Program-made: the position numbers and the translations under genes
Shown here: positions 8,524 through 61,239 of the stretch, piece after piece
Layout of the letters: each line of letters starts with the position of its first letter
Position numbering within the stretch: the stretch's first letter is position 1
Notes under the pieces: generated by a model
Seen by the model: only the letters and a program-made list of their open reading frames with translations
Databases searched by the model: none
Told to the model about the DNA's origin: nothing
Origin: Arthrobacter sp. Leaf141
GTDB taxonomy: Bacteria > Actinomycetota > Actinomycetes > Actinomycetales > Micrococcaceae
Direction of reading: 5' to 3'
Assembly (NCBI RefSeq): GCF_001424565.1
Contig: NZ_LMOL01000003.1
Coordinates: 1,198 to 65,197 of the forward strand
DNA length: 64,000 nt

Positions 8524-9747
8524 GCCCCGGCCGGCCCGGTTCGCCGCGTGGCCCAGCAGCTCCAGTGGGCCCCGCCATTTAAGGAGCGCGAACAGCACTC
8601 CCACGGCAACGGCAGCGCCCGCCTGAGCGAAGTACATGCCCTCCTCCGTCCACCCCGCAGGGAGCGGCTTGAGGTAGAGGGCGGAGACCACCCATACGTG
8701 GAGGGTATAGAGCGTCAGCGTCATGGCGCCGGCGCCGCGCAACGGCAGCAGCAGGTCAAGGTCCACCCATTCGGCCAGCCTGCCCAGCAGCAGGCAAGCA
8801 CCGATCACAGCCGCGGCCACGGCGGACGTGTGCAACAGGTCCAGGGTGGTCCCTGAATGCGGTGCTGCCGACGCCAGCCACCACCAGGACCCCTCCTGGG
8901 GTATCCCCGTGAGGTTGACCTGCAGGATGCTCTTCAGCGGATAGCCGGGCGCGTTCAGCAGGTCCTCCAGTGCTGCCCTGCCGCCCCAGTTCTCCATGGC
9001 CGTAACTCCAAGGGTTTTCGCCAGGACCGCGGTGACGGTTCCGCCCACCAGGAGCAGGACGGGAACCTGGGCCTTGCTGAGCGCCAGCCGGCCGATCACC
9101 AGGCCCACCAACAGGTACGACAACCATTGGAAGACGGGGTAGTAACCCGTGAAAAACAGGTCAGCGAGAAGCCGCGCCGGGGTCCCCAGATCCTCCCAGG
9201 AAGGGTTGTGTCCCAGTTTCAGCGGGGGAGTACCCGCCAGCAGCCAGGGCCGAAGCAGGTACGCCAGGACCGGTGAGGCGAGGAGCCAGCCTGCCGCCCA
9301 GGCGCACAAGGGCTTTAATCCCAACCCCATGAAGGGCAGGACGCACAGGAACAGCAACGCGTAATGGACCAGGATGATGGCCAGGTTCACTTCCAGCCCG
9401 CCCAGGGTGAGCCCGACGGCGGCAATCACCAGGGCGCGCAGTGCCACACCCCGCCGGGCTGCCCACAGCGGCGACCCGGCCAGGGGCTGGTGCTTTCCGG
9501 TGGACAGGGCGAGGCCCACACCGGCAAGGACAGCAAACAGGGCTGCTGCCCGGCCGGAAAAGGCCAGGCCAATCCAGGTGGGGGTCAGGTTGGCGTTCTG
9601 TTCAAACGTGGCCAGCAGGTGGGTGGCCATCATGCCCAGCAGGGCCAGGCCCCGGGCAGCGTCGATGCCGTAAAGCCGTCCTGTCGCTGGCCGGCCGGTG
9701 GGCTTTCCGGTCTTCCCGGTCGATCGGGCCTGACGGCTGGAAGTCAT
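8509..9747 (-). CDS. Polytopic membrane acyltransferase-like protein (HGSNAT/DUF1624-DUF418 type)
   Basis: 412 residues with about ten hydrophobic segments. The N-terminal GRLYGIDAARGLALLGMMATHLLATF is the signature of the heparan-alpha-glucosaminide N-acetyltransferase/DUF1624 group. The histidine in MATHLL is the residue expected to carry or face the acyl group in relatives. Further helices include AALFAVLAGVGLAL, ALVIAAVGLTLGGLEV and LTLYTLHVWVVSALYL. Such proteins are thought to move acetyl groups across the membrane to sugars, but the substrate here is unknown. It is convergent with the preceding gene and ends inside the 14-bp repeats. Confidence 0.75.
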   Translation of the reverse strand: MTSSRQARSTGKTGKPTGRPATGRLYGIDAARGLALLGMMATHLLATFEQNANLTPTWIGLAFSGRAAALFAVLAGVGLALSTGKHQPLAGSPLWAARRGVALRALVIAAVGLTLGGLEVNLAIILVHYALLFLCVLPFMGLGLKPLCAWAAGWLLASPVLAYLLRPWLLAGTPPLKLGHNPSWEDLGTPARLLADLFFTGYYPVFQWLSYLLVGLVIGRLALSKAQVPVLLLVGGTVTAVLAKTLGVTAMENWGGRAALEDLLNAPGYPLKSILQVNLTGIPQEGSWWWLASAAPHSGTTLDLLHTSAVAAAVIGACLLLGRLAEWVDLDLLLPLRGAGAMTLTLYTLHVWVVSALYLKPLPAGWTEEGMYFAQAGAAVAVGVLFALLKWRGPLELLGHAANRAGRGSQAG

Positions 9748-9862
9748 GACCAGATCGTCTCATACCGGGCCATGAAGGGCTGCGGCCCCGCAGCGCTCAA
9801 GCCACAAGGCCCAGGTCCCGGGCGGATTATCCAGCGGCCCATTCCATCCCGGGTGCGCACCC

Positions 9863-9898
9863 TTGAATTCGAATATATGTTCGAATAGACTGACCCGC
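9863..9898 (+). promoter_or_regulatory. LexA-controlled leaderless promoter
   Basis: TTGAAT (9863-9868), a 17-base spacer, TAGACT (9886-9891), seven bases and then ATG 9899. The box TCGAATATATGTTCGA at 9869-9884 fills the spacer. It matches the mycobacterial-type LexA consensus TCGAAC-N4-GTTCGA at 11 of 12 fixed positions. Bound LexA would block polymerase, so SOS induction of the next gene is expected. Confidence 0.8.
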
Positions 9899-10237
9899 AT
9901 GCACACTCCACCACACCGGGTCCCTGCCCCCGAAACCGGCAGTACGGGGCTTATGAAAGCCATGAGTCCGGGCACCGTCGACTACCTTTTCCGGCAGCTC
10001 GTAGCCGGCAGGCCGGCCGAGGACGTCCAATGGGCCAACGAGGGCATCAGCCTCACCGCACAGCCGGAGGGTGCTGAGCTCGCGCGCCGGCTGGCCGAGA
10101 CGGACCTTGACGCCCTCACTCCGCTGGAGCTCTTCAATTACGTCAGGGCCGCCCAGCGGCTGGCCGACTGGGCCGAAAACCTTCGGCAGGCAGCCGTTGG
10201 AAGATACTGCCACGCGCCGGAGCAACGGCCGGCCTGA
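9899..10237 (+). CDS. SOS-regulated DUF222-like small protein
   Basis: 112 residues. The segment LTPLELFNYVRAAQRLADWAENLRQAAVGRY resembles the N-terminal DUF222 helices of actinobacterial HNH/13E12-repeat proteins, but there is no HNH nuclease domain, so this is a short stand-alone version. ATG 9899 is chosen because it sits seven bases after the TAGACT -10 element, making it leaderless; an in-frame ATG 36 bases upstream lies before the -35 element. Genes of the 13E12 family are LexA targets in mycobacteria, which fits the LexA box here. Molecular role unknown. Confidence 0.7.
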   Translation: MHTPPHRVPAPETGSTGLMKAMSPGTVDYLFRQLVAGRPAEDVQWANEGISLTAQPEGAELARRLAETDLDALTPLELFNYVRAAQRLADWAENLRQAAVGRYCHAPEQRPA

Positions 10238-10390
10238 GCCTCCCACGCCCGTCCGCAGAGCGGCTTCCCGGGGCAGGCGGCCACCCGCCAGCACCGCAAA
10301 GCGGCTTCGGAAGCCCCATCATGACTTATGAAGCCGGTTGTTTGACGTTCATCACGCCCGTGGCATTGTCCTAACCAGCATGGGACAGGG

Positions 10391-10403
10391 TAACGTTTTT
10401 TCC
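10391..10403 (+). promoter_or_regulatory. Leaderless promoter of dapA
   Basis: TAACGT at 10391-10396, seven bases, ATG at 10404. The spacing selects 10404 over two earlier in-frame starts at 10338 and 10380. Confidence 0.6.
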
Positions 10404-49453: not shown

Positions 49454-50152
49454 ATGGCCTCGAGGTTTGTGGTGCGTGCCATCCCGCCCTTTTTGCTGCC
49501 GCCGCAGGCCCCAACAGCCGGCGCGGAGCTGGACACGTCAGAGCTGGCCCGCGCCGCGGCCATGGCACCGGCGGTGCGGGCTGTGTTCGTGGCCGGCCGG
49601 CTGGCCCAGCGCCGGTTCGCGGCGGAGCTCCTGGGAGTGCCGGCCGGCGACCTCACCGCCAGCTATCGCTGCCCGCGCTGCGGCCCGGACGCCGGCCACG
49701 GCAGGCCCGGCTACACCCTGGCCGGTGTTCCGGCGCCCCTGGTCCTCAGCCTTTCCCGGGCGGCGGGCTGGACCCTGCTGGCCGCCGTGACGGATCCGGC
49801 GCCGGGTTTTTTGCTCGGCGTTGATGTGGAGGACCCGGCCCGGACCGGTTTTGCGGGCTTTGCCGGCGTGGCCCTGACGGCAGCCGAGCAGCGGGCGGTG
49901 GCGCCGCTCCACGGGGACATGTTGCTGGCCGCCCAGGCCCGGCTCTGGGCGCGCAAGGAAGCCTGGTTGAAAATGACCGGCGAGGGGCTGCGGACGTCCC
50001 CGGCCGGACTGGACGTCACCGCCCTGCCGGGCCTGGCTGACTTGGCCCCCGCCCGGAGCGGGCTGCCCGCCCACCTGGCGGCCGCCGTCGCCCGTTCCGA
50101 CGGGACGCTGCCGGAGCTGGCTGGAGACCCGGCACTGGAACAGCAGGCCTGA
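49454..50152 (+). CDS. Sfp-type 4'-phosphopantetheinyl transferase
   Basis: 232 residues. The metal-binding motif GVDVED (D124, E126) and the downstream WARKEAWLK (K168, E169, K173) are the two signatures of Sfp/AcpT-type transferases that attach phosphopantetheine to carrier domains. A cysteine pair in RCPRCG (residues 72-76) is an unusual addition. It is convergent with the aminopeptidase gene (4 bases apart) and 1.4 kb from the synthetase, whose carrier-domain serine is the obvious local target. A cell-wide role in activating acyl carrier proteins is also possible. Confidence 0.85.
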   Translation: MASRFVVRAIPPFLLPPQAPTAGAELDTSELARAAAMAPAVRAVFVAGRLAQRRFAAELLGVPAGDLTASYRCPRCGPDAGHGRPGYTLAGVPAPLVLSLSRAAGWTLLAAVTDPAPGFLLGVDVEDPARTGFAGFAGVALTAAEQRAVAPLHGDMLLAAQARLWARKEAWLKMTGEGLRTSPAGLDVTALPGLADLAPARSGLPAHLAAAVARSDGTLPELAGDPALEQQA

Positions 50153-50156
50153 GCCC

Positions 50157-51518
50157 TCAGCTCCCGGGCAGTGGCGGCAGGGCTTCCTCGTAGAGCCACG
50201 GGTGGAGCAACGCCTCCGAATCAAGCCCCGTGGCCCGGTCCACGGCCAGGATGAAGTCGGCGGTGGCCACCGATCCGTGGCGGTGCGCCGTGGCCCATTC
50301 CTGCAGCAGCGCAAAAAAGGCCAGGTCGCCGCAGGCCACCCGGACCGCGTGCAGGGCCAGGGCGCCGCGCTTATACACCCGGTCATCAAACATGTGTTCC
50401 GGGCCGGGATCGCCCACCAGCAGGTCCTGGGCATCGGCGTTGAGCCGGCGCCAGGCAGCAGCCGCCCGGTCCGCCACACCCATCACGCCGGCCTCCTCGG
50501 ACCAGATCCATTCGGCGTAGCAGGCAAAGCCCTCATGCAGCCAGATGTCCTGCCAGGAAGCGGCGGTCAGCGAATTGCCGAACCATTGGTGGGAGAGCTC
50601 ATGGGCGACCAGGCGCTGCGCCTCCCAGTCCAGCTCAAGGTGGTTGGGGCCCAGGATGGACATGCCCTGCGCCTCCAGCGGGATCTCCAACACGTCCTCC
50701 GCGACCACCACCGTGTAGGCAGGGAAGGGATAGGGCCCAAAGCAGTTGATGAACGTGCGCATCATGGCCGGCTGGTGGGCCAGGCCAAGGCGGGCCTGGC
50801 CGGCGAGGGCCGGGGGAACGGCCACCAGCTGGGTGACCTGGCCGGGGTGGCGGCCGGCGTCGAGCTCCAGCAGCTGGTACCGGCCGATCTGCACGGTGGC
50901 GAGATACGTGGCCATGGGTTCGGCCTGGTCATAGGTCCAGGTCTCGCGGCTGGATCGGGTGGTGTGGCCCTGCAGGGTGCCGTTGCATACGGCCCGGTAG
51001 TTCGCGTCCGTGGTGACAGTGAACCGGTAGCTGGCCTTGTCGCGCGGGTGGTCGTTGCAGGGGAACCAGGACGGCGCGCCGTTGGGCTGGCCGGCCACCA
51101 GGACCCCGTCGGAAAGCTCCTCCCAGCCCACCTCGCCCCAGAAGCCCCGGCGCGGCGCCGGATTGCCTTCGTACCGGACTTCAAGCGTGAACGGCTGCCC
51201 GGGTTCCAGGGGTACCGGTGTTGAGACCACCAGCTGCTCGGCGCGCTGGCTGAAGCGGGCTGCCTTCCGGCCGTCCAGCTGGACTTTGGTGGCGCGCAGC
51301 CCGGTCAGGTCAAGGACAATGGCCGACGCCTGTTCCTGGGCCACGCCGCGCAGCACCGCCCTGCCGCTGAGGCGGTTGCTGGCCACTTTGTAGTCGAGGA
51401 ACAGGTCGTAGTGCTCCACCCGGTATGCGCTGGTACCTGCACCGGGCAGGTAGGGGTCGGGCGCGCCGCCGCCCGGCAGGCCGATCGGGCTGCCGGCGGG
51501 TGGTGCTGTGGGACTCAT
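50157..51518 (-). CDS. M1-family zinc aminopeptidase (short form)
   Basis: 453 residues. The zinc motif HExxH-x18-E is complete (H306, E307, H310 in VAHELSHQWFGNS; E329 in WLHEGF), and EAQGMS replaces the usual GAMEN-type exopeptidase loop. The large C-terminal helical domain of longer M1 enzymes is missing. No signal peptide is visible. The gene starts 19 bases after the Pls-like synthetase on the same strand and is surely co-transcribed. An epsilon-polylysine-degrading aminopeptidase is known in producer streptomycetes; a similar trimming or self-protection role is an inference. Confidence 0.87.
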   Translation of the reverse strand: MSPTAPPAGSPIGLPGGGAPDPYLPGAGTSAYRVEHYDLFLDYKVASNRLSGRAVLRGVAQEQASAIVLDLTGLRATKVQLDGRKAARFSQRAEQLVVSTPVPLEPGQPFTLEVRYEGNPAPRRGFWGEVGWEELSDGVLVAGQPNGAPSWFPCNDHPRDKASYRFTVTTDANYRAVCNGTLQGHTTRSSRETWTYDQAEPMATYLATVQIGRYQLLELDAGRHPGQVTQLVAVPPALAGQARLGLAHQPAMMRTFINCFGPYPFPAYTVVVAEDVLEIPLEAQGMSILGPNHLELDWEAQRLVAHELSHQWFGNSLTAASWQDIWLHEGFACYAEWIWSEEAGVMGVADRAAAAWRRLNADAQDLLVGDPGPEHMFDDRVYKRGALALHAVRVACGDLAFFALLQEWATAHRHGSVATADFILAVDRATGLDSEALLHPWLYEEALPPLPGS

Positions 51519-51537: not shown

Positions 51538-54500
51538 TCAGGCAGGCGGGGCGGCGGGGCCGGTCCACGGACTGACCGGGTTGCCCATCCAGTACGTGGC
51601 GGCAGGCACCGATTCGCCGCGCATCACCAGGGATGCCGGGCCTACGGTACCGCCGGCGCCGATGCTGGCCTGTGGCAGGATGACCCCGTGCGGTCCCATG
51701 GTGGCACCGTCTTCGAGCGTAACAGCGTCCAGGCTCATCACCCGGTCGTGGAAAAGGTGGGTCTGGACCACGCAGCCGCGGTTGACTGTTGCGTTGCGGC
51801 CCAGGGTTACCAGGTCCGCTTCCGGCAGCCAGTAGCTCTCGCACCAGGTGCCGGTGCCGATGCTGGCGCCGAGGCTCCGGAGCCACCAGACCAGGGCCGG
51901 GGTGCCGGTGGCTGCGCGGGCGAACCAGGGGGCGCTGACCATCTCGATGAACGTGTCCACCACTTCGTTCCGCCAGATGAAGGAACTCCACAGCGGATGT
52001 TCGCCGGCCCGGATCCTGCCCACCAGGATCCATTTGGCCAGCACGGAAGCCGCGGCGGCCGCGGCCCCGGCCAGGATCATCACCACGCCGCTGAGCAGGG
52101 CGGCCACGGCGTAGTTGAAGGTACCGGCCAGCCAATCGAAGGCGAGCATCACTGCCACGGCGATGCCAACGGTGAGCATCACGGGAATAAACCGGCCCAG
52201 TTCCCAGAGGGTCCTGGCCACTTTGAGCCGGAACGGCGGCTGGAAGGTGCGGGCGTCGTCGGAGGCAATCGCGGTACGCCGCAGCCGGACGGGCGGGCTG
52301 CCCAGCCATGAGGTGCCGGACTTCGCCTTGGCCGGCGTGGCGGACAGGACGGCCACCAGCGAGTTCTTGGGCACGTTCCGGCCCGCGGCCGTCATGCCGG
52401 AGTTGCCCAGGAACGAGCGCTTGCCGATCTTGGCCGGGGCCACACGGAGCCAGCCGCCGTCCAGTTCGTAGGACGCCACCATGGTGTCGTCGGCCAGGAA
52501 CGCGCCTTCGCCCACGGTGGTCATCTTGGGGATCAGCAGGACAGTGGAGGCTTCGACGTTTTTGCCGATTTTGGCGCCCAGGAGGCGCAGCCACACCGGG
52601 GTGAACAGGCTGGCGTAGATGGGGAACAGCAGGTCCCGGGCCAGGTCCAGGACTCGTTCGGTGGCCCACACCTGCCAGCCAACCCGGCTGCGCACCCGGT
52701 GGTGGCCTTCGACCAGCCCGATGCCCAGCAGCCTCGTGGCGGCCAGGATCAGCAGGGCGTTGGTGAGTAACCAGGCCAGCGCTGCCGGTGCCAGCGCCAG
52801 GGCCAAGCCGGGAATCGCGGCAGAAAGCGAGGAGCTGCCCTGGATGAACGGGTACGCCACCGCGAGTGCGGCACCGGCCGCCACGATGGGCAGCAGGGCC
52901 AGGGCCGCCGAGGCCGAGGCAAACCCGGCAAACCACAGCCTGGCCAGGAACCTGCCCTGCGCCGGGGCGTCCGGGAAGGAGTGCCGGGCTTTGCCGCGGC
53001 GCACTGCGGGGGAGCCGGCCACCAGCTGGCCGGCCTTGACCTTCCCCAGCACCGCGGACCCGGCCTCCACCTGCGCCCCGGCACCGATCGAGGCGCCGGG
53101 CATCAGCGTGCTCCGGGCTCCCACCGTGGCGCCTGCACCGATCCGGACGGCGCCGATATGGACGCTGTCGCCGTCGATCCACCAGCCGGACAGGTCCACT
53201 TCCGGTTCCACGTTGGCCCCCGGTCCCAGCGTCAGCAAACCTGTAACCGGCGGCAGCGAATGGAGCTGGACGTCCCGGCCGATCTTCGCGCCAAGGGCCC
53301 TGGCGTAGTAGGGCACCCACGGCGCGCTGGCCAGGCTGATGGCGCCGGAAAGGTCCTGGATCTGCTCGGCCAGCCACAGCCGGAGATGAACCCGGCCCGA
53401 GCGTGGATACGTCCCCGGCCCGACACCGCGCAACAGGAACCGGGCTGCGGCCACCGACATCAGCATCCGGCCGGCCGGGCTGACGAAGAGCAGCCAGGCG
53501 GCGGCCACCCACCACCAGGAAACGGTGGGCGCTGCCGAGAAACCTGCCACCGCCGCGAGCACGTTGTTGGCGGCCATCACGTAGGTCAGCCACCGCATGC
53601 CCACCAGGATGTGCAGCGGGACGCCCATCAAGGTCTGGAAGATCTGCGATTTCCGGGCCGTGGGCCGGACGGGCCGTTCCCTGGCCGGCCCGGCCGTACC
53701 GCCCGGGTTGGACTGCCGGGCCACTTCCACCAGTGCTCCGATGCGGGGCGTGGCGTAGATGTCCGCAACGGTGATGGTGGGGTAGCGCCGGCGCAGGGCC
53801 GAGACCAGTTGCGCGGCGGACAGCGAGCCGCCGCCGTAAGCAAAGAAGTCAGCGTCGAGGGACGTGACCGGGCTGCCCAGCACGGCGCTCCACTGCTCCA
53901 CGATCCAGGCGGCGTCGTCCGGCAGGTTCAATGGGGCGGCATCGGCTGCCGCGGCACCGGCGCCGGCCAGCGGCCAGGGCAGCGCGTGGCGGTCCACCTT
54001 TCCGCTGGTTTTGGTGGGCAGCGAGGGGACCACGGTCAGCAGGGGAACCAGGGCCGCCGGCAGGCTGGTGCCGAGCAGCGCACGGGCTGCAGCCAGGTCG
54101 ATGTCCTGTCCGGAAGCGGGGGCCAGGTATCCCACCAGGATCTGGTTCCCTGCCGCCGTGGTGCGGACGGCCGCCGCGGCGCCGCCCACGTGCGGCAACG
54201 ACTGGAGGGCGGCATCGATCTCGCCGAGTTCGATCCTGCGGCCGCCCAGCTTGACCTGTTCGTCCGCGCGGCCCTGGAAGATCAGGCCGGCCTGCTCGTA
54301 CTTGACCAGGTCGCCGGAGCGGTAGGCGCGTTTCCAGCCGAGGCTGGGCATGGGGGCGTACTTCTCGGCGTCCTTGGCGGGGTCGAGGTAGCGGGCCAGG
54401 CCTACGCCGCCGATGATCAGCTCACCGACTTCCCCTTCGGCAACGGGCACCCCATCGGCGTCCACCACTGCCAGGTCCCAGCCGTCCAGCGGCAGCCCGA

Positions 54501-55587
54501 TCCGGACCGGCCCGGGGCCGCCCAGCGGGGCAGCGCAGGCAACCACTGTCGCTTCCGTGGGGCCGTAGGTGTTCCAGACTTCGCGGCCATCCACGGCCAG
54601 GCGTTCGGCGAGTTCCGGCGGGCAGGCTTCGCCGCCGAAAATCAGCAACCGGACGCTCTCCAGCGATTCCGCGGGCCACAGCGCCGCCAGCGTGGGGACT
54701 GTGGAGACTGCCGTGATGCCGTGGCTGATCAGCCACGGGCCAAGGTCCATTCCGGTGCGCACTAGGGCCCGCGGGGCGGGCACCAGGGCTGCACCGTGGC
54801 GCCAGGCCAGCCACATCTCCTCGCAGGAAGCGTCAAAGGCCACCGACAGCCCGGCCAGGACCCGGTCCTGTGGCCCCAACGGCTCCCCGGTCAGGAAAAT
54901 CCGGGCTTCGGCGTCCACAAACGCGGCGGCCGACCGGTGTTGGACGGCCACCCCCTTGGGCGTACCGGTTGAGCCGGACGTAAAAATGATCCAGGCGTCG
55001 TCGTCCGGGCCCGGCGGCCGCGCACCGGCAAAAGGCCCGGTGCGTCCGGTGCCGGACAGGACTCCGCCCGTACCCAGCACCCCCGCCACCTTGGCTTCAC
55101 CGAACACCAGGCGGGCCCGTTCGTCGGGATCGTCAGCGTCCACGGGCACGTAGGCGGCGCCCACCAGCAGCACCGCGAGGATGGCGATGTAAAGCTCGTT
55201 GGTGCCGGAGGGGATCCGCACCCCGATCCGGTCCCCGGCGCCCACCCCCGCCTGGTGCAGCTGCAGCGCCGCAGCCCGGACTTCCACCAGAAGCTGGGCG
55301 TAACTGAGGGACTGCCGGCCGTCGTCTAGCGCGGAAGCGTCGGGGTAGCGGGCCGCCGTGTCCTGGAGGATGTCGATCAGGGTGCGGACCGGCGGGGTTG
55401 CCGGGAGGCCGGGCAGCTGCGGGGCGTGGACCAGGTCCCCGCCGGGCAAAGTTCCGGGCGCAGCATCCGCGGGTCCGGGCTGGCCGGGCACCCCCGGAGC
55501 CGGCCCCTCCGGTGGCGCCAAAGGCGCCGCAGCGGAGGTTGCCGGGCCGGAAAGGATGTTCCCCGAAGGGGCATGCTGCGAAGTCAC
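51538..55587 (-). CDS. Pls/PosA-type non-ribosomal peptide synthetase (cationic homopolymer synthetase-like)
   Basis: 1349 residues from GTG 55587. The adenylation domain spans about residues 65-540: A3 IIFTSGSTGTPKGV, A4 AFDAS, A5 NTYGPTEAT, A7 YRSGDLVK, A8 GRADEQVKLGGRRIELGEID and A10 Lys530. A hand alignment to GrsA gives specificity residues D252-A253-E256-S295-I316-G318-T340-V348-V349-K530, close to the published lysine code. The carrier serine is Ser588 (GGGSLS). The rest has six hydrophobic segments in three pairs, separated by three hexapeptide-repeat (left-handed beta-helix-like) domains near 765-865, 1000-1100 and 1238-1340. No ordinary condensation or thioesterase domain is present. 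This is the layout of epsilon-poly-L-lysine synthetase. The product is not known. Confidence 0.88.
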   Translation of the reverse strand: MTSQHAPSGNILSGPATSAAAPLAPPEGPAPGVPGQPGPADAAPGTLPGGDLVHAPQLPGLPATPPVRTLIDILQDTAARYPDASALDDGRQSLSYAQLLVEVRAAALQLHQAGVGAGDRIGVRIPSGTNELYIAILAVLLVGAAYVPVDADDPDERARLVFGEAKVAGVLGTGGVLSGTGRTGPFAGARPPGPDDDAWIIFTSGSTGTPKGVAVQHRSAAAFVDAEARIFLTGEPLGPQDRVLAGLSVAFDASCEEMWLAWRHGAALVPAPRALVRTGMDLGPWLISHGITAVSTVPTLAALWPAESLESVRLLIFGGEACPPELAERLAVDGREVWNTYGPTEATVVACAAPLGGPGPVRIGLPLDGWDLAVVDADGVPVAEGEVGELIIGGVGLARYLDPAKDAEKYAPMPSLGWKRAYRSGDLVKYEQAGLIFQGRADEQVKLGGRRIELGEIDAALQSLPHVGGAAAAVRTTAAGNQILVGYLAPASGQDIDLAAARALLGTSLPAALVPLLTVVPSLPTKTSGKVDRHALPWPLAGAGAAAADAAPLNLPDDAAWIVEQWSAVLGSPVTSLDADFFAYGGGSLSAAQLVSALRRRYPTITVADIYATPRIGALVEVARQSNPGGTAGPARERPVRPTARKSQIFQTLMGVPLHILVGMRWLTYVMAANNVLAAVAGFSAAPTVSWWWVAAAWLLFVSPAGRMLMSVAAARFLLRGVGPGTYPRSGRVHLRLWLAEQIQDLSGAISLASAPWVPYYARALGAKIGRDVQLHSLPPVTGLLTLGPGANVEPEVDLSGWWIDGDSVHIGAVRIGAGATVGARSTLMPGASIGAGAQVEAGSAVLGKVKAGQLVAGSPAVRRGKARHSFPDAPAQGRFLARLWFAGFASASAALALLPIVAAGAALAVAYPFIQGSSSLSAAIPGLALALAPAALAWLLTNALLILAATRLLGIGLVEGHHRVRSRVGWQVWATERVLDLARDLLFPIYASLFTPVWLRLLGAKIGKNVEASTVLLIPKMTTVGEGAFLADDTMVASYELDGGWLRVAPAKIGKRSFLGNSGMTAAGRNVPKNSLVAVLSATPAKAKSGTSWLGSPPVRLRRTAIASDDARTFQPPFRLKVARTLWELGRFIPVMLTVGIAVAVMLAFDWLAGTFNYAVAALLSGVVMILAGAAAAAASVLAKWILVGRIRAGEHPLWSSFIWRNEVVDTFIEMVSAPWFARAATGTPALVWWLRSLGASIGTGTWCESYWLPEADLVTLGRNATVNRGCVVQTHLFHDRVMSLDAVTLEDGATMGPHGVILPQASIGAGGTVGPASLVMRGESVPAATYWMGNPVSPWTGPAAPPA

Positions 55588-59020: not shown

Positions 59021-59974
59021 ATGAACACCGAAACCCGCGAAAACACCTCGATGCTGGACGCGCAAAGCAAAGCCGGCACGCTGATTGAAGCCCTGCCCTG
59101 GATCCAGCGTTTCGCCGGGACCACCATGGTGATCAAGTACGGCGGCAACGCCATGGTCAACGACGAGCTCCGGCGTGCCTTCGCCGAGGACGTGGTGTTC
59201 CTGCACCACGTGGGCATCCACCCCGTGGTGGTCCACGGCGGCGGCCCGCAGATCAACTCCATGCTGGCGCGCCTGGGCATTGAATCCGAGTTCAAGGGCG
59301 GACTGCGCGTCACCACGCCGGAGGCCATGGACGTGGTCCGCATGGTCCTGACCGGCCAGGTGGGCCGGGAGCTGGTGGGACTCATCAACTCCCACGGTCC
59401 GTACGCGGTGGGCATGTCCGGGGAAGACGGCGGCCTGCTCCGCGCCGTCAGGACCGGAACCGTGGTTGACGGCGAAGACGTGGACCTGGGCCTGGTGGGC
59501 GAAGTAGTGGGGGTGAACCCGGAAGGCATCCTCGACATCCTCGCCGCCGGCCGCATCCCGGTGATCTCCACCGTTGCCCCCGAAATCGAAGCCGGCGCCG
59601 ATCCTGCCGACAGCCGGGTCCAGACCACCGGCCAGGTGCTCAACGTCAACGCCGACACCGCCGCGGCTGCCCTCGCCGAAGCCCTGGGCGCCTCCAAGCT
59701 GGTCATCCTCACCGACGTCGAGGGCCTGTACGCCAACTGGCCGGACAAGTCCTCGCTCATCTCCTCGCTGAAGGCCTCGGACCTCCGGGACCTCCTGCCC
59801 ACGCTGGAGTCGGGGATGATCCCCAAAATGGAAGCCTGCCTCAAGGCAGTGGACGGCGGGGTGGAACGGGCGCATATCGTTGATGGCCGCCTGCCGCACT
59901 CCATGCTCCTTGAAACCTTCACCACCGCCGGCATCGGCACCCAGGTGGTTCCCGACCAGGAAGTGAGCGCATGA
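59021..59974 (+). CDS. argB: Acetylglutamate kinase ArgB
   Basis: 317 residues. Amino-acid kinase fold. The nucleotide and substrate motifs are [26 protein letters not shown] and [15 protein letters not shown], with GGMIPK-type [17 protein letters not shown] near the end. A 25-residue N-terminal helix is typical of arginine-inhibited hexameric forms. GGAGG lies 7 bases upstream of ATG 59021. It overlaps argD by 4 bases. Confidence 0.96.
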
Positions 59975-61239
59975 ACGACACTGTTGACATGGGTCCGGCC
60001 GGGCCTGACGCCAAAGCATCCGTGATGACCGGAATGGGCAGCGGCGCCGAGTGGCTGTCCCGCTACTCAAGTTCCCTGATGGGTGTCTTCGGCACCCCGC
60101 AACGGGTCCTGGTGCGCGGCGCCGGCTGCCTGGTCTGGGACGCCGACGGCAAGGAATACCTTGACCTCCTGGGAGGCATCGCCGTCAACGCGCTGGGCCA
60201 CGCCCACCCGTTCGTGACCTCCGTGATCGCCAGCCAGCTGGCCACCCTGGGCCACGTCTCCAACTTCTTCACCAGCCCCACCCAGATCGCGCTGGCCGAG
60301 AAGCTGCTGGCCCTGGCCAAGGCACCGGCCGGCTCCAAGGTTTTTTTCGCCAATTCCGGCACCGAAGCCGTGGAGGCCGCCTTCAAGCTGGCCCGCCGCA
60401 ACACCGGCACAGCGGACGCACCACGGACCAAGGTCATTGCGCTGGAGGGCGCCTTCCACGGCCGCACCATGGGCGCCCTGGCCCTCACAGCCAAGGAAGC
60501 GTACCGGGCACCCTTCGAACCGCTGCCCGGCGGCGTGGTGCATATCCCCTTCGGCGACCTCGAAGCCCTGCGTGCCGCCGTCGACCATTCCACTGCGGCC
60601 GTGTTCCTGGAACCCATCCAGGGTGAAGCCGGTGTCCGGCCGCTGAGCGCCGAATACCTGCAGGCCGCCCGCCGGCTCACCACCGAGGCCGGCGCGCTGC
60701 TGATCCTCGACGAGGTCCAGACCGGTGTAGGCCGGACCGGCACCTGGCTGGCCAGCGAAGACGCCGGAATTGTTCCGGACGCCATCACCCTGGCCAAGGG
60801 CCTGGGCGGCGGGTTCCCCATCGGCGCGCTGCTGACCATGGGGGAGAAGCCGTCCGCCCTGTTGTCCGCCGGCCAGCACGGCACCACCTTCGGCGGCAAC
60901 CCGGTGGCAACGGCCGCTGCCCTGGCAACACTGCACGCCATCGAAAACCAGCACGTCCTGGCCAACGTCAACACCGTGGGGGAACACCTGCGCGCCGGCC
61001 TGGCCGCCGTTCCCGGCGTGACCGGCGTCCGCGGCAGGGGACTGCTGATCGGCTTCGACCTCGACGCCGACGTGGCACCGGCAGTGGTCCAGGCCGGCCT
61101 GGACGCGGGGTTCATCGTTAACGCCCCCGGCCCGCACACCATCCGCCTGGCACCCCCGCTGGTCCTGACGACCGCCCAGGCAGAGACCTTCCTCGCCGCC
61201 TTCCCGGCCATCCTCCAGACTGCTAAGGACGCCCAGTGA
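59971..61239 (+). CDS. argD: Acetylornithine aminotransferase ArgD
   Basis: 422 residues. PLP-dependent class III aminotransferase. Signatures: [65 protein letters not shown] and the PLP lysine in [16 protein letters not shown]. It may also act on succinyl-diaminopimelate, as in other bacteria. It overlaps argB and argF by 4 bases each. Confidence 0.95.

What the first reader, a model, noticed from the sequence alone, without database searches (positions are those of the whole stretch)
51538..55587. A poly-lysine-synthetase-like (Pls/PosA) enzyme with a lysine-type specificity code
The 1349-residue protein has one adenylation domain, one carrier domain (Ser588), six membrane helices in three pairs and three interspersed left-handed beta-helix-like domains. 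It has no condensation or thioesterase domain. This is the distinctive layout of epsilon-poly-L-lysine synthetase. Hand alignment to GrsA gives D-A-E-S-I-G-T-V-V-K. As I recall it, the published bacitracin lysine code is D-A-E-S-I-G-S-V-C-K, so 8 of 10 positions agree and Glu256 is suited to a basic side chain. The organism may make a lysine or other diamino-acid homopolymer, an activity little studied in Arthrobacter-like bacteria.
Basis: partly seen in the sequence, partly recalled or inferred. Interest (0 to 1): 0.88.

Follow-up and report, generated by a model that had tools for sequence, protein, structure and literature searches.

The report
Epsilon-poly-lysine synthetase gene in Arthrobacter relative
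This Arthrobacter-like bacterium carries the gene for a known kind of enzyme that links lysines into the antimicrobial polymer epsilon-poly-L-lysine, next to genes that probably degrade the polymer and activate the enzyme; such genes are already reported in its relatives, so the find is real but ordinary.

Summary
Window 51538-55587 (minus strand) encodes a 1349-residue protein with one adenylation (A) domain, one carrier domain (Ser588), no condensation or thioesterase domain, and a Pls/PosA C-terminal region (TIGR02353, 704 bits, cut-off 423). An AlphaFold2 model shows three helix pairs alternating with three beta-helix-like domains.

It differs from the published ornithine and beta-lysine codes. 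An M1 metallopeptidase gene lies 19 bases downstream; one starts within 800 bases downstream in 79 of 80 named relatives. In Streptomyces and Corynebacterium pls likewise has a peptidase partner (PMC8117764). A phosphopantetheinyl transferase gene follows, convergent; one lies within 3.5 kb downstream in 29 of 80.

Most likely this is a working epsilon-poly-L-lysine synthetase with its degrading enzyme. Pls homologues with identical or very similar codes were already reported in coryneforms including Arthrobacter (PMC8117764), and NAPAA-type clusters as shared by Micrococcaceae isolates (PMC11078813). New member of a known kind; production untested.

The parts
51538..55587 (-). pls-like gene, 1349-aa epsilon-poly-L-lysine synthetase (A-T-membrane region)
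53980..55365 (-). adenylation domain (residues about 75-536)
   Evidence: Pfam AMP-binding 75-399, TIGR01733 95-471; 7WEW match 63-542, 654 bits
53998..54834 (-). stretch holding the ten specificity-code residues D252 to K530: DAESIGTVVK
   Evidence: identical to 7WEW
53725..53907 (-). carrier (thiolation) domain, residues 561-621
   Evidence: Pfam PP-binding 44.4 bits
53824..53826 (-). Ser588, phosphopantetheine attachment site
   Evidence: GGGS motif, conserved in at least 97% of 110 sequences
51574..53640 (-). Pls/PosA C-terminal polymerising region, residues 650-1338
   Evidence: TIGR02353, 704 bits
53434..53655 (-). helix pair 1, residues about 645-718
   Evidence: AlphaFold2 helices; weakly hydrophobic
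52981..53286 (-). left-handed beta-helix-like domain C1, residues about 768-869
   Evidence: Pfam Hexapep 814-846
52723..52953 (-). membrane helix pair 2, residues about 879-955
52276..52581 (-). left-handed beta-helix-like domain C2, residues about 1003-1104
52021..52233 (-). membrane helix pair 3, residues about 1119-1189
51562..51873 (-). left-handed beta-helix-like domain C3, residues about 1239-1342
51742..51759 (-). HLFHDR motif of C3 (1277-1282), candidate active-site histidines
   Evidence: invariant in the 47-sequence alignment and at least 97% of 110 sequences; catalytic role inferred
50157..51518 (-). M1-family metallopeptidase in the PldII position, 19 bases after pls
   Evidence: Pfam Peptidase_M1 94.3 bits; HELSH at residue 306 and HExxH-x18-E pattern; within 800 bases downstream of pls in 79 of 80 named loci
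49454..50152 (+). 4'-phosphopantetheinyl transferase superfamily protein (232 aa), convergent with the peptidase gene; possible activator of the carrier domain
   Evidence: Pfam ACPS 42.2 bits; best NCBIfam match HetI only 20.5 bits, far under its cut-off; within 3.5 kb downstream in 29 of 80 named loci

Best explanation
This is a member of the epsilon-poly-L-lysine synthetase (Pls) lineage. The A domain activates L-lysine with ATP. A phosphopantetheinyl transferase, perhaps the one encoded nearby, arms Ser588, which then holds lysine as a thioester. The membrane-embedded region, three beta-helix domains packed together like an acyltransferase trimer, joins each lysine through its side-chain (epsilon) amine to the next carboxylate and releases the lysine chain to the outside. 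The M1 peptidase cuts the polymer, limiting its length or protecting the producer. Shown here: the genes, domains, code identity, conserved gene pair and predicted fold. Taken from published work on Pls and PldII: lysine chemistry, isopeptide linkage, export and degradation. Inferred: that this strain expresses it, that this PPTase serves Pls, and that C3 holds the active site.
For: TIGR02353 704 bits over cut-off 423. Best solved-structure match is the epsilon-poly-L-lysine synthase A domain 7WEW, 654 bits, next best 386 bits; 319 of 475 aligned residues identical, code 10 of 10. Code DAESIGTVVK in 111 of 111 rows (window, 7WEW and 109 loci chosen by similarity, some duplicate genomes) and in 21 of the 23 new loci over the TIGR02353 cut-off from a 396-genome phylum sample (three more matches over the cut-off were given no locus and not read). 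M1 peptidase within 800 bases downstream in 79 of 80 named loci and downstream in 20 of those 21 phylum loci. PPTase gene within 3.5 kb downstream in 29 of 80. The A-domain tree separates window, 7WEW and the lysine-code copies from the nine other-code copies with support 100/99. In three loci of the same bacterial family other codes sit beside other precursor genes (DAB transaminase in L158 and L163, lysine 2,3-aminomutase family in L156), which supports reading the code as substrate. Heterologous expression of the Corynebacterium variabile homologue gave epsilon-poly-L-lysine (PMC8117764).
Against: No assay exists for this protein. C. variabile itself made no detectable polymer, nor did C. 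glutamicum expressing its gene; it took a Streptomyces promoter and host, so the gene here may be silent. The full-length S. albulus Pls was not available, so the C-terminal region was compared only through TIGR02353 and relatives. Orthology with 7WEW is unresolved: 7WEW groups weakly (85/74) with the second class of Micrococcaceae copies, not with the window's class. That second class has a near-identical code but no directly adjacent M1 peptidase, so code and peptidase do not always go together. The code does not tell L- from D-lysine or fix the linkage. The PPTase link is seen in two bacterial families only, the gene is on the opposite strand, and the genome has five PPTase-family matches. 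A hydropathy scan found no N-terminal membrane segment in the M1 protein, whereas PldII is placed outside the membrane.
Confidence: 0.92

Rival explanations
1. A cationic homopolymer synthetase for another diamino acid (ornithine, diaminobutyrate, diaminopropionate or beta-lysine).
For: The overall layout is shared by the whole family. The window also holds arginine-pathway genes next door (argC, argJ, a class-III aminotransferase, OTCace), which could suggest ornithine supply.
Against: The code equals lysine Pls at 10 of 10. At the position that tunes substrate length (Met218 in PosA) it has Ala, as lysine enzymes do. Published PosA code DMEHNGTVSK and beta-lysine code DGESISVVNK differ. The seven copies with Phe there (DFECLSVVTK) are only 27-29% identical to the window protein; of three whose neighbours I scanned, two (L158, L163) have a DAB transaminase and L162 showed none among the neighbours scanned. 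The arg genes lie on the other strand and look like an ordinary arginine pathway.
Confidence: 0.05
2. A Pls relic or diverged enzyme that no longer makes polymer, or is not expressed.
For: C. variabile did not make the polymer natively; no production assay in Arthrobacter showed in the listings.
Against: The frame is open over 1349 codons, the code and Ser588 are intact and the widely conserved C-terminal residues are kept, the peptidase partner is conserved, and 10 of the 11 other listed genomes of the genus have a copy at 79-85% identity.
Confidence: 0.03

Closest known systems
Epsilon-poly-L-lysine synthetase Pls (A domain PDB 7WEW; from Streptomyces albulus as I recall, one search gives only the molecule name)
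   Same: A domain with 10 of 10 code residues and 67% identity; same domain order and a peptidase gene next to pls as described for S. albulus.
   Different: Different host (Arthrobacter-like), locus between pheST and argC, and a PPTase gene close by; full-length identity not measured.
Pls of Corynebacterium variabile and coryneform homologues (Jiang 2021, PMC8117764)
   Same: Same layout, peptidase neighbour, and code reported as identical or highly similar; Arthrobacter, Glutamicibacter and Micrococcus homologues are named there.
   Different: Product shown there for the C. variabile gene in S. coelicolor; the main text does not mention a phosphopantetheinyl transferase (0 occurrences).
PosA, delta-poly-L-ornithine synthetase of Acinetobacter baumannii (PMC10522769)
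   Same: Same family and predicted C-terminal fold: six helices and three left-handed beta-helices.
   Different: Code DMEHNGTVSK, ornithine substrate, and a single-gene operon.

Membership tests
Pls (epsilon-poly-L-lysine synthetase) | One A and one carrier domain, no condensation or thioesterase domain | tested here: met
Pls (epsilon-poly-L-lysine synthetase) | Pls/PosA C-terminal region with six membrane helices and three tandem domains | tested here: met
   TIGR02353 704 bits; AlphaFold2 model pTM 0.87; first helix pair weakly hydrophobic
Pls (epsilon-poly-L-lysine synthetase) | Lysine specificity code as in characterised Pls | tested here: met
   10 of 10 positions identical to 7WEW
Pls (epsilon-poly-L-lysine synthetase) | Peptidase (PldII-type) gene directly downstream | tested here: met
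   M1 peptidase 19 bases downstream. No comparison with the PldII sequence itself was made
Pls (epsilon-poly-L-lysine synthetase) | Groups with characterised Pls in a tree | tested here: met
   same side of a 100/99 split from the nine other-code copies; branching beside 7WEW unresolved
Pls (epsilon-poly-L-lysine synthetase) | Makes epsilon-linked poly-L-lysine | not testable with these tools
   needs expression and mass spectrometry
PosA (delta-poly-L-ornithine synthetase) | Ornithine code with Met at the PosA 218 position | tested here: not met
   Ala253 in the window; PosA code
Epsilon-poly-beta-lysine synthetase | Code DGESISVVNK and adjacent lysine 2,3-aminomutase | tested here: not met
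   code differs; no aminomutase among the ten neighbouring ORFs scanned
Gamma-poly-diaminobutyrate synthetase | Adjacent DAB transaminase and aspartate kinase | tested here: not met
   the ten neighbouring ORFs scanned include M1 peptidase, PPTase, pheST, a quinone reductase and arg genes, no aspartate kinase; the class-III aminotransferase at 59971-61239 lies among the arg genes and was scanned with Pfam only

The most novel reading that the evidence does not exclude
In Micrococcaceae and Microbacteriaceae the polymer locus is a self-contained module of synthetase, peptidase and a dedicated phosphopantetheinyl transferase, the synthetase being kept in nearly half of the window's family (91 of 197 genomes, the own one included), so that epsilon-poly-lysine or a cell-retained form of it is a standing surface or stress polymer of these soil bacteria rather than an occasional antibiotic.
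Probability: 0.25. Interest if true: 0.45.

Novelty: new member of a known kind. Interest (0 to 1): 0.22.

Why it matters
Epsilon-poly-L-lysine is a commercial food preservative. A single-celled bacterium with an intact synthetase whose code matches the characterised enzyme, a peptidase partner and a possible activating enzyme is a reasonable expression source, and a good place to ask why so many non-filamentous actinobacteria keep the gene. The gene itself is not a discovery.

Tried and rejected
Ornithine, diaminobutyrate and beta-lysine products were considered and set aside on code and neighbours. The idea that some relatives carry an insert between pls and the peptidase (about 5 kb in L020, L053, L077, L104 and L111, 2.2 kb in L068, in the table) proved an artefact of split tblastn segments for L020 and L053, whose ORFs I read; with the corrected measure only L068 of the 80 named loci lacks a peptidase within 800 bases (L104 and L111 were not re-measured). 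The PDB second look by VIA-align 2 listed carrier-domain matches in the main and was uninformative for the C-terminal region; that no beta-helix row appears there is no evidence against it. Sequence search of the C-terminal region in the PDB gave only weak matches, the best a gamma-carbonic anhydrase at E 0.00089 and many hexapeptide acyltransferases. A search for a PPTase partner of Pls in print found one review, seen in the listing only; a search for a lysine-supply paralogue cluster listed four papers, none read for it. The first paper search, with the phrase 'poly-lysine synthetase', Pls and Arthrobacter, returned nothing.
Full report
What is there. The ORF at 51538-55587 on the minus strand encodes 1349 residues. 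NCBIfam places residues 650-1338 in TIGR02353, 'Pls/PosA family non-ribosomal peptide synthetase', at 704 bits against a curated cut-off of 423, and residues 95-471 in the amino-acid adenylation subfamily. Pfam gives AMP-binding (75-399), PP-binding (561-621) and two hexapeptide models (814-846), and no condensation or thioesterase domain. The gene is the only TIGR02353 match over the cut-off in its genome of 4.36 Mb, 45 contigs, 99.5% complete. That genome also has six condensation-domain matches at two other places, on contigs C5 and C37, so ordinary NRPS clusters exist but elsewhere.

Substrate. The best solved-structure match is 7WEW, 'epsilon-poly-L-lysine synthase', at 654 bits; the next is at 386 bits. 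That 7WEW comes from S. albulus is recalled; PMC10522769 cites it as the epsilon-PL synthetase A domain. On a MAFFT alignment 319 of 475 aligned residues are identical (67%), and the ten code residues, D252 A253 E256 S295 I316 G318 T340 V348 V349 K530, read DAESIGTVVK in both. In PosA, Asp217 and Glu221 bind the two amines and Met218 limits substrate length, lysine enzymes having Ala there; the window has Asp252, Ala253 and Glu256. PosA reads DMEHNGTVSK and the beta-lysine enzyme DGESISVVNK. Lysine is therefore much the best reading.

Relatives. The 109 loci aligned (80 named plus 29 of the family search, a few the same genomes), with the window and 7WEW, all carry DAESIGTVVK, 111 of 111 rows; they were chosen by similarity, so this is not an unbiased sample. 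In an even sample of 396 genomes of the phylum, the own one included, 24 have a TIGR02353 match over the cut-off. Of the 23 new loci over the cut-off that I read, 21 have the same code; L121 gave no readable code and L138 reads DFEYNGTVTK; three further matches over the cut-off had no locus and were not read. In the family sample, 129 of 197 genomes match the whole protein at 1e-30, a number that includes ordinary A domains; by my count of the listing 91 of 197, own genome included, have a copy scoring 1589 bits or more at 62% identity or better, some with a stop codon in the matched stretch. Of 11 other listed genomes of the genus, 10 have a copy at 79-85%.

Neighbours. The M1 metallopeptidase gene at 50157-51518 starts 19 bases after the pls stop codon. 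The protein has HELSH at residue 306 and the HExxH-x18-E pattern, as do 132 of 133 sequences examined, a set that includes duplicates and the window's own. An M1 gene starts within 800 bases downstream of pls on the same strand in 79 of 80 named loci; in the other, L068 (Tsukamurella), the match is about 2.2 kb downstream. It is downstream of pls in 20 of the 21 same-code phylum loci, L127 showing none in its short flank. PMC8117764 (parts 1 and 2 of 4 read, plus passages) states that the pls-peptidase operon is a context different from that of the other three synthetases then known and that PldII degrades epsilon-PL. PMC9223678 (passages) describes pldII as translationally coupled to pls and needed for self-protection. 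Identity of this M1 protein with PldII was not measured. The PPTase-superfamily gene at 49454-50152 converges on it. Such a gene lies within 3.5 kb downstream in 29 of 80 named loci, convergent in 28 and on the same strand in L021; by genus name all 29 are Micrococcaceae or Microbacteriaceae (titles, families partly recalled). In 14 of these 29 no pheT was found downstream in the held flank (one, L011, has only 2.4 kb of flank), so the link is not merely inherited with the pheST location. In five more loci the best PPTase match lies further off or upstream. The genome has five PPTase-family matches; two lie 4-6 kb from the two condensation-domain loci. That each carrier system has its own PPTase is inference.

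Fold and mechanism. The AlphaFold2 model of residues 545-1346, with 46 homologues in the alignment, has mean pLDDT 85.5 and pTM 0.87 and shows helix pairs followed by beta-helix stretches three times. Foldseek gives 129 matches at E 0.001 or better; the 50 listed are almost all hexapeptide-repeat acyltransferases, matched over single domains (TM-score by target at most 0.55, several rows with rmsd over 20 where the alignment spans more than one domain). PMC10522769 section 13 describes the same architecture for PosA, with approximate three-fold symmetry like sugar-nucleotide acyltransferases, so this is not new. The invariant HLFHDR in C3 (1277-1282) has no counterpart that I noticed in C1 or C2; a single asymmetric site is my inference.

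Placement. An A-domain tree of 60 rows puts the window, 7WEW, the window-type copies and the second class described below on one side (51 rows) and the nine other-code copies on the other, with support 100/99. Branching inside the large group is partly unresolved; 7WEW falls weakly (85/74) beside the second class, so I call the window a member of the Pls lineage without claiming strict orthology.

Known or new. Jiang 2021 already lists Arthrobacter among genera with Pls homologues and reports identical or highly similar codes. Pseudarthrobacter sp. So.54 (PMC12025171, passages) has an antiSMASH NAPAA (epsilon-polylysine-type) cluster, and the Micrococcaceae strains among Antarctic isolates are said to share NAPAA clusters (PMC11078813, passages). 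The review PMC8506220 (passages) repeats the coryneform finding. I saw no production assay in Arthrobacter in the listings of searches, which cover only the open-licence library and were not all opened. Verdict: a new member of a known kind, well supported, of modest interest.

Limits. Nothing here shows expression or product. Against the reading: C. variabile made no polymer in culture, nor did C. glutamicum carrying its gene, and production needed a Streptomyces promoter and host; the second class of copies has a near-identical code without the adjacent M1 gene; the M1 protein shows no N-terminal membrane segment in a hydropathy scan although PldII is placed outside the membrane; and the first helix pair is weakly hydrophobic.

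Noticed in passing
Code DAESIGTVIK in 11 of 12 (L154 has DAESIGTVVK), no directly adjacent M1 peptidase (L154 has a peptidase match at its edge over 3 kb away). A HGSNAT-type membrane acetyltransferase gene (PF07786) lies in the flanks in 12 of 12 and a dihydrodipicolinate synthase, a lysine-pathway enzyme, in 7 of 12. It could be a lysine polymer cluster with its own precursor supply and N-acetylation in place of hydrolysis as self-protection.
   Followed up: partly
L157, L158, L159, L160 (11911-16359), L161, L162, L163 (the last from the window's genus): A third class, seven copies, 27-29% identical, code DFECLSVVTK. L163 has a diaminobutyrate transaminase and an aspartate kinase upstream; L158 has a diaminobutyrate transaminase and an M28 peptidase beside it; L162 showed neither among the neighbours scanned but has a HGSNAT-type gene. 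Probable poly-diaminobutyrate clusters in Micrococcaceae.
   Followed up: partly
L156:3976-8016 and 9049-10398: A copy with code DGESVSVVNK, one residue from the published beta-lysine code, with a KamA/lysine 2,3-aminomutase-family gene (246 bits, cut-off 199), a dihydrodipicolinate synthase and a HGSNAT-type gene around it: a candidate epsilon-poly-beta-lysine cluster.
   Followed up: partly
window 51538-55587: The first 50 or so residues of the protein are proline- and alanine-rich; by my count, 63 of 80 named relatives align only from residue 43 or later, so the true start may lie further in.
   Followed up: no
G000 contigs C5 (302-316 kb) and C37 (25-34 kb): Two ordinary NRPS loci with condensation domains, each with a PPTase-family gene 4-6 kb away.
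   Followed up: no
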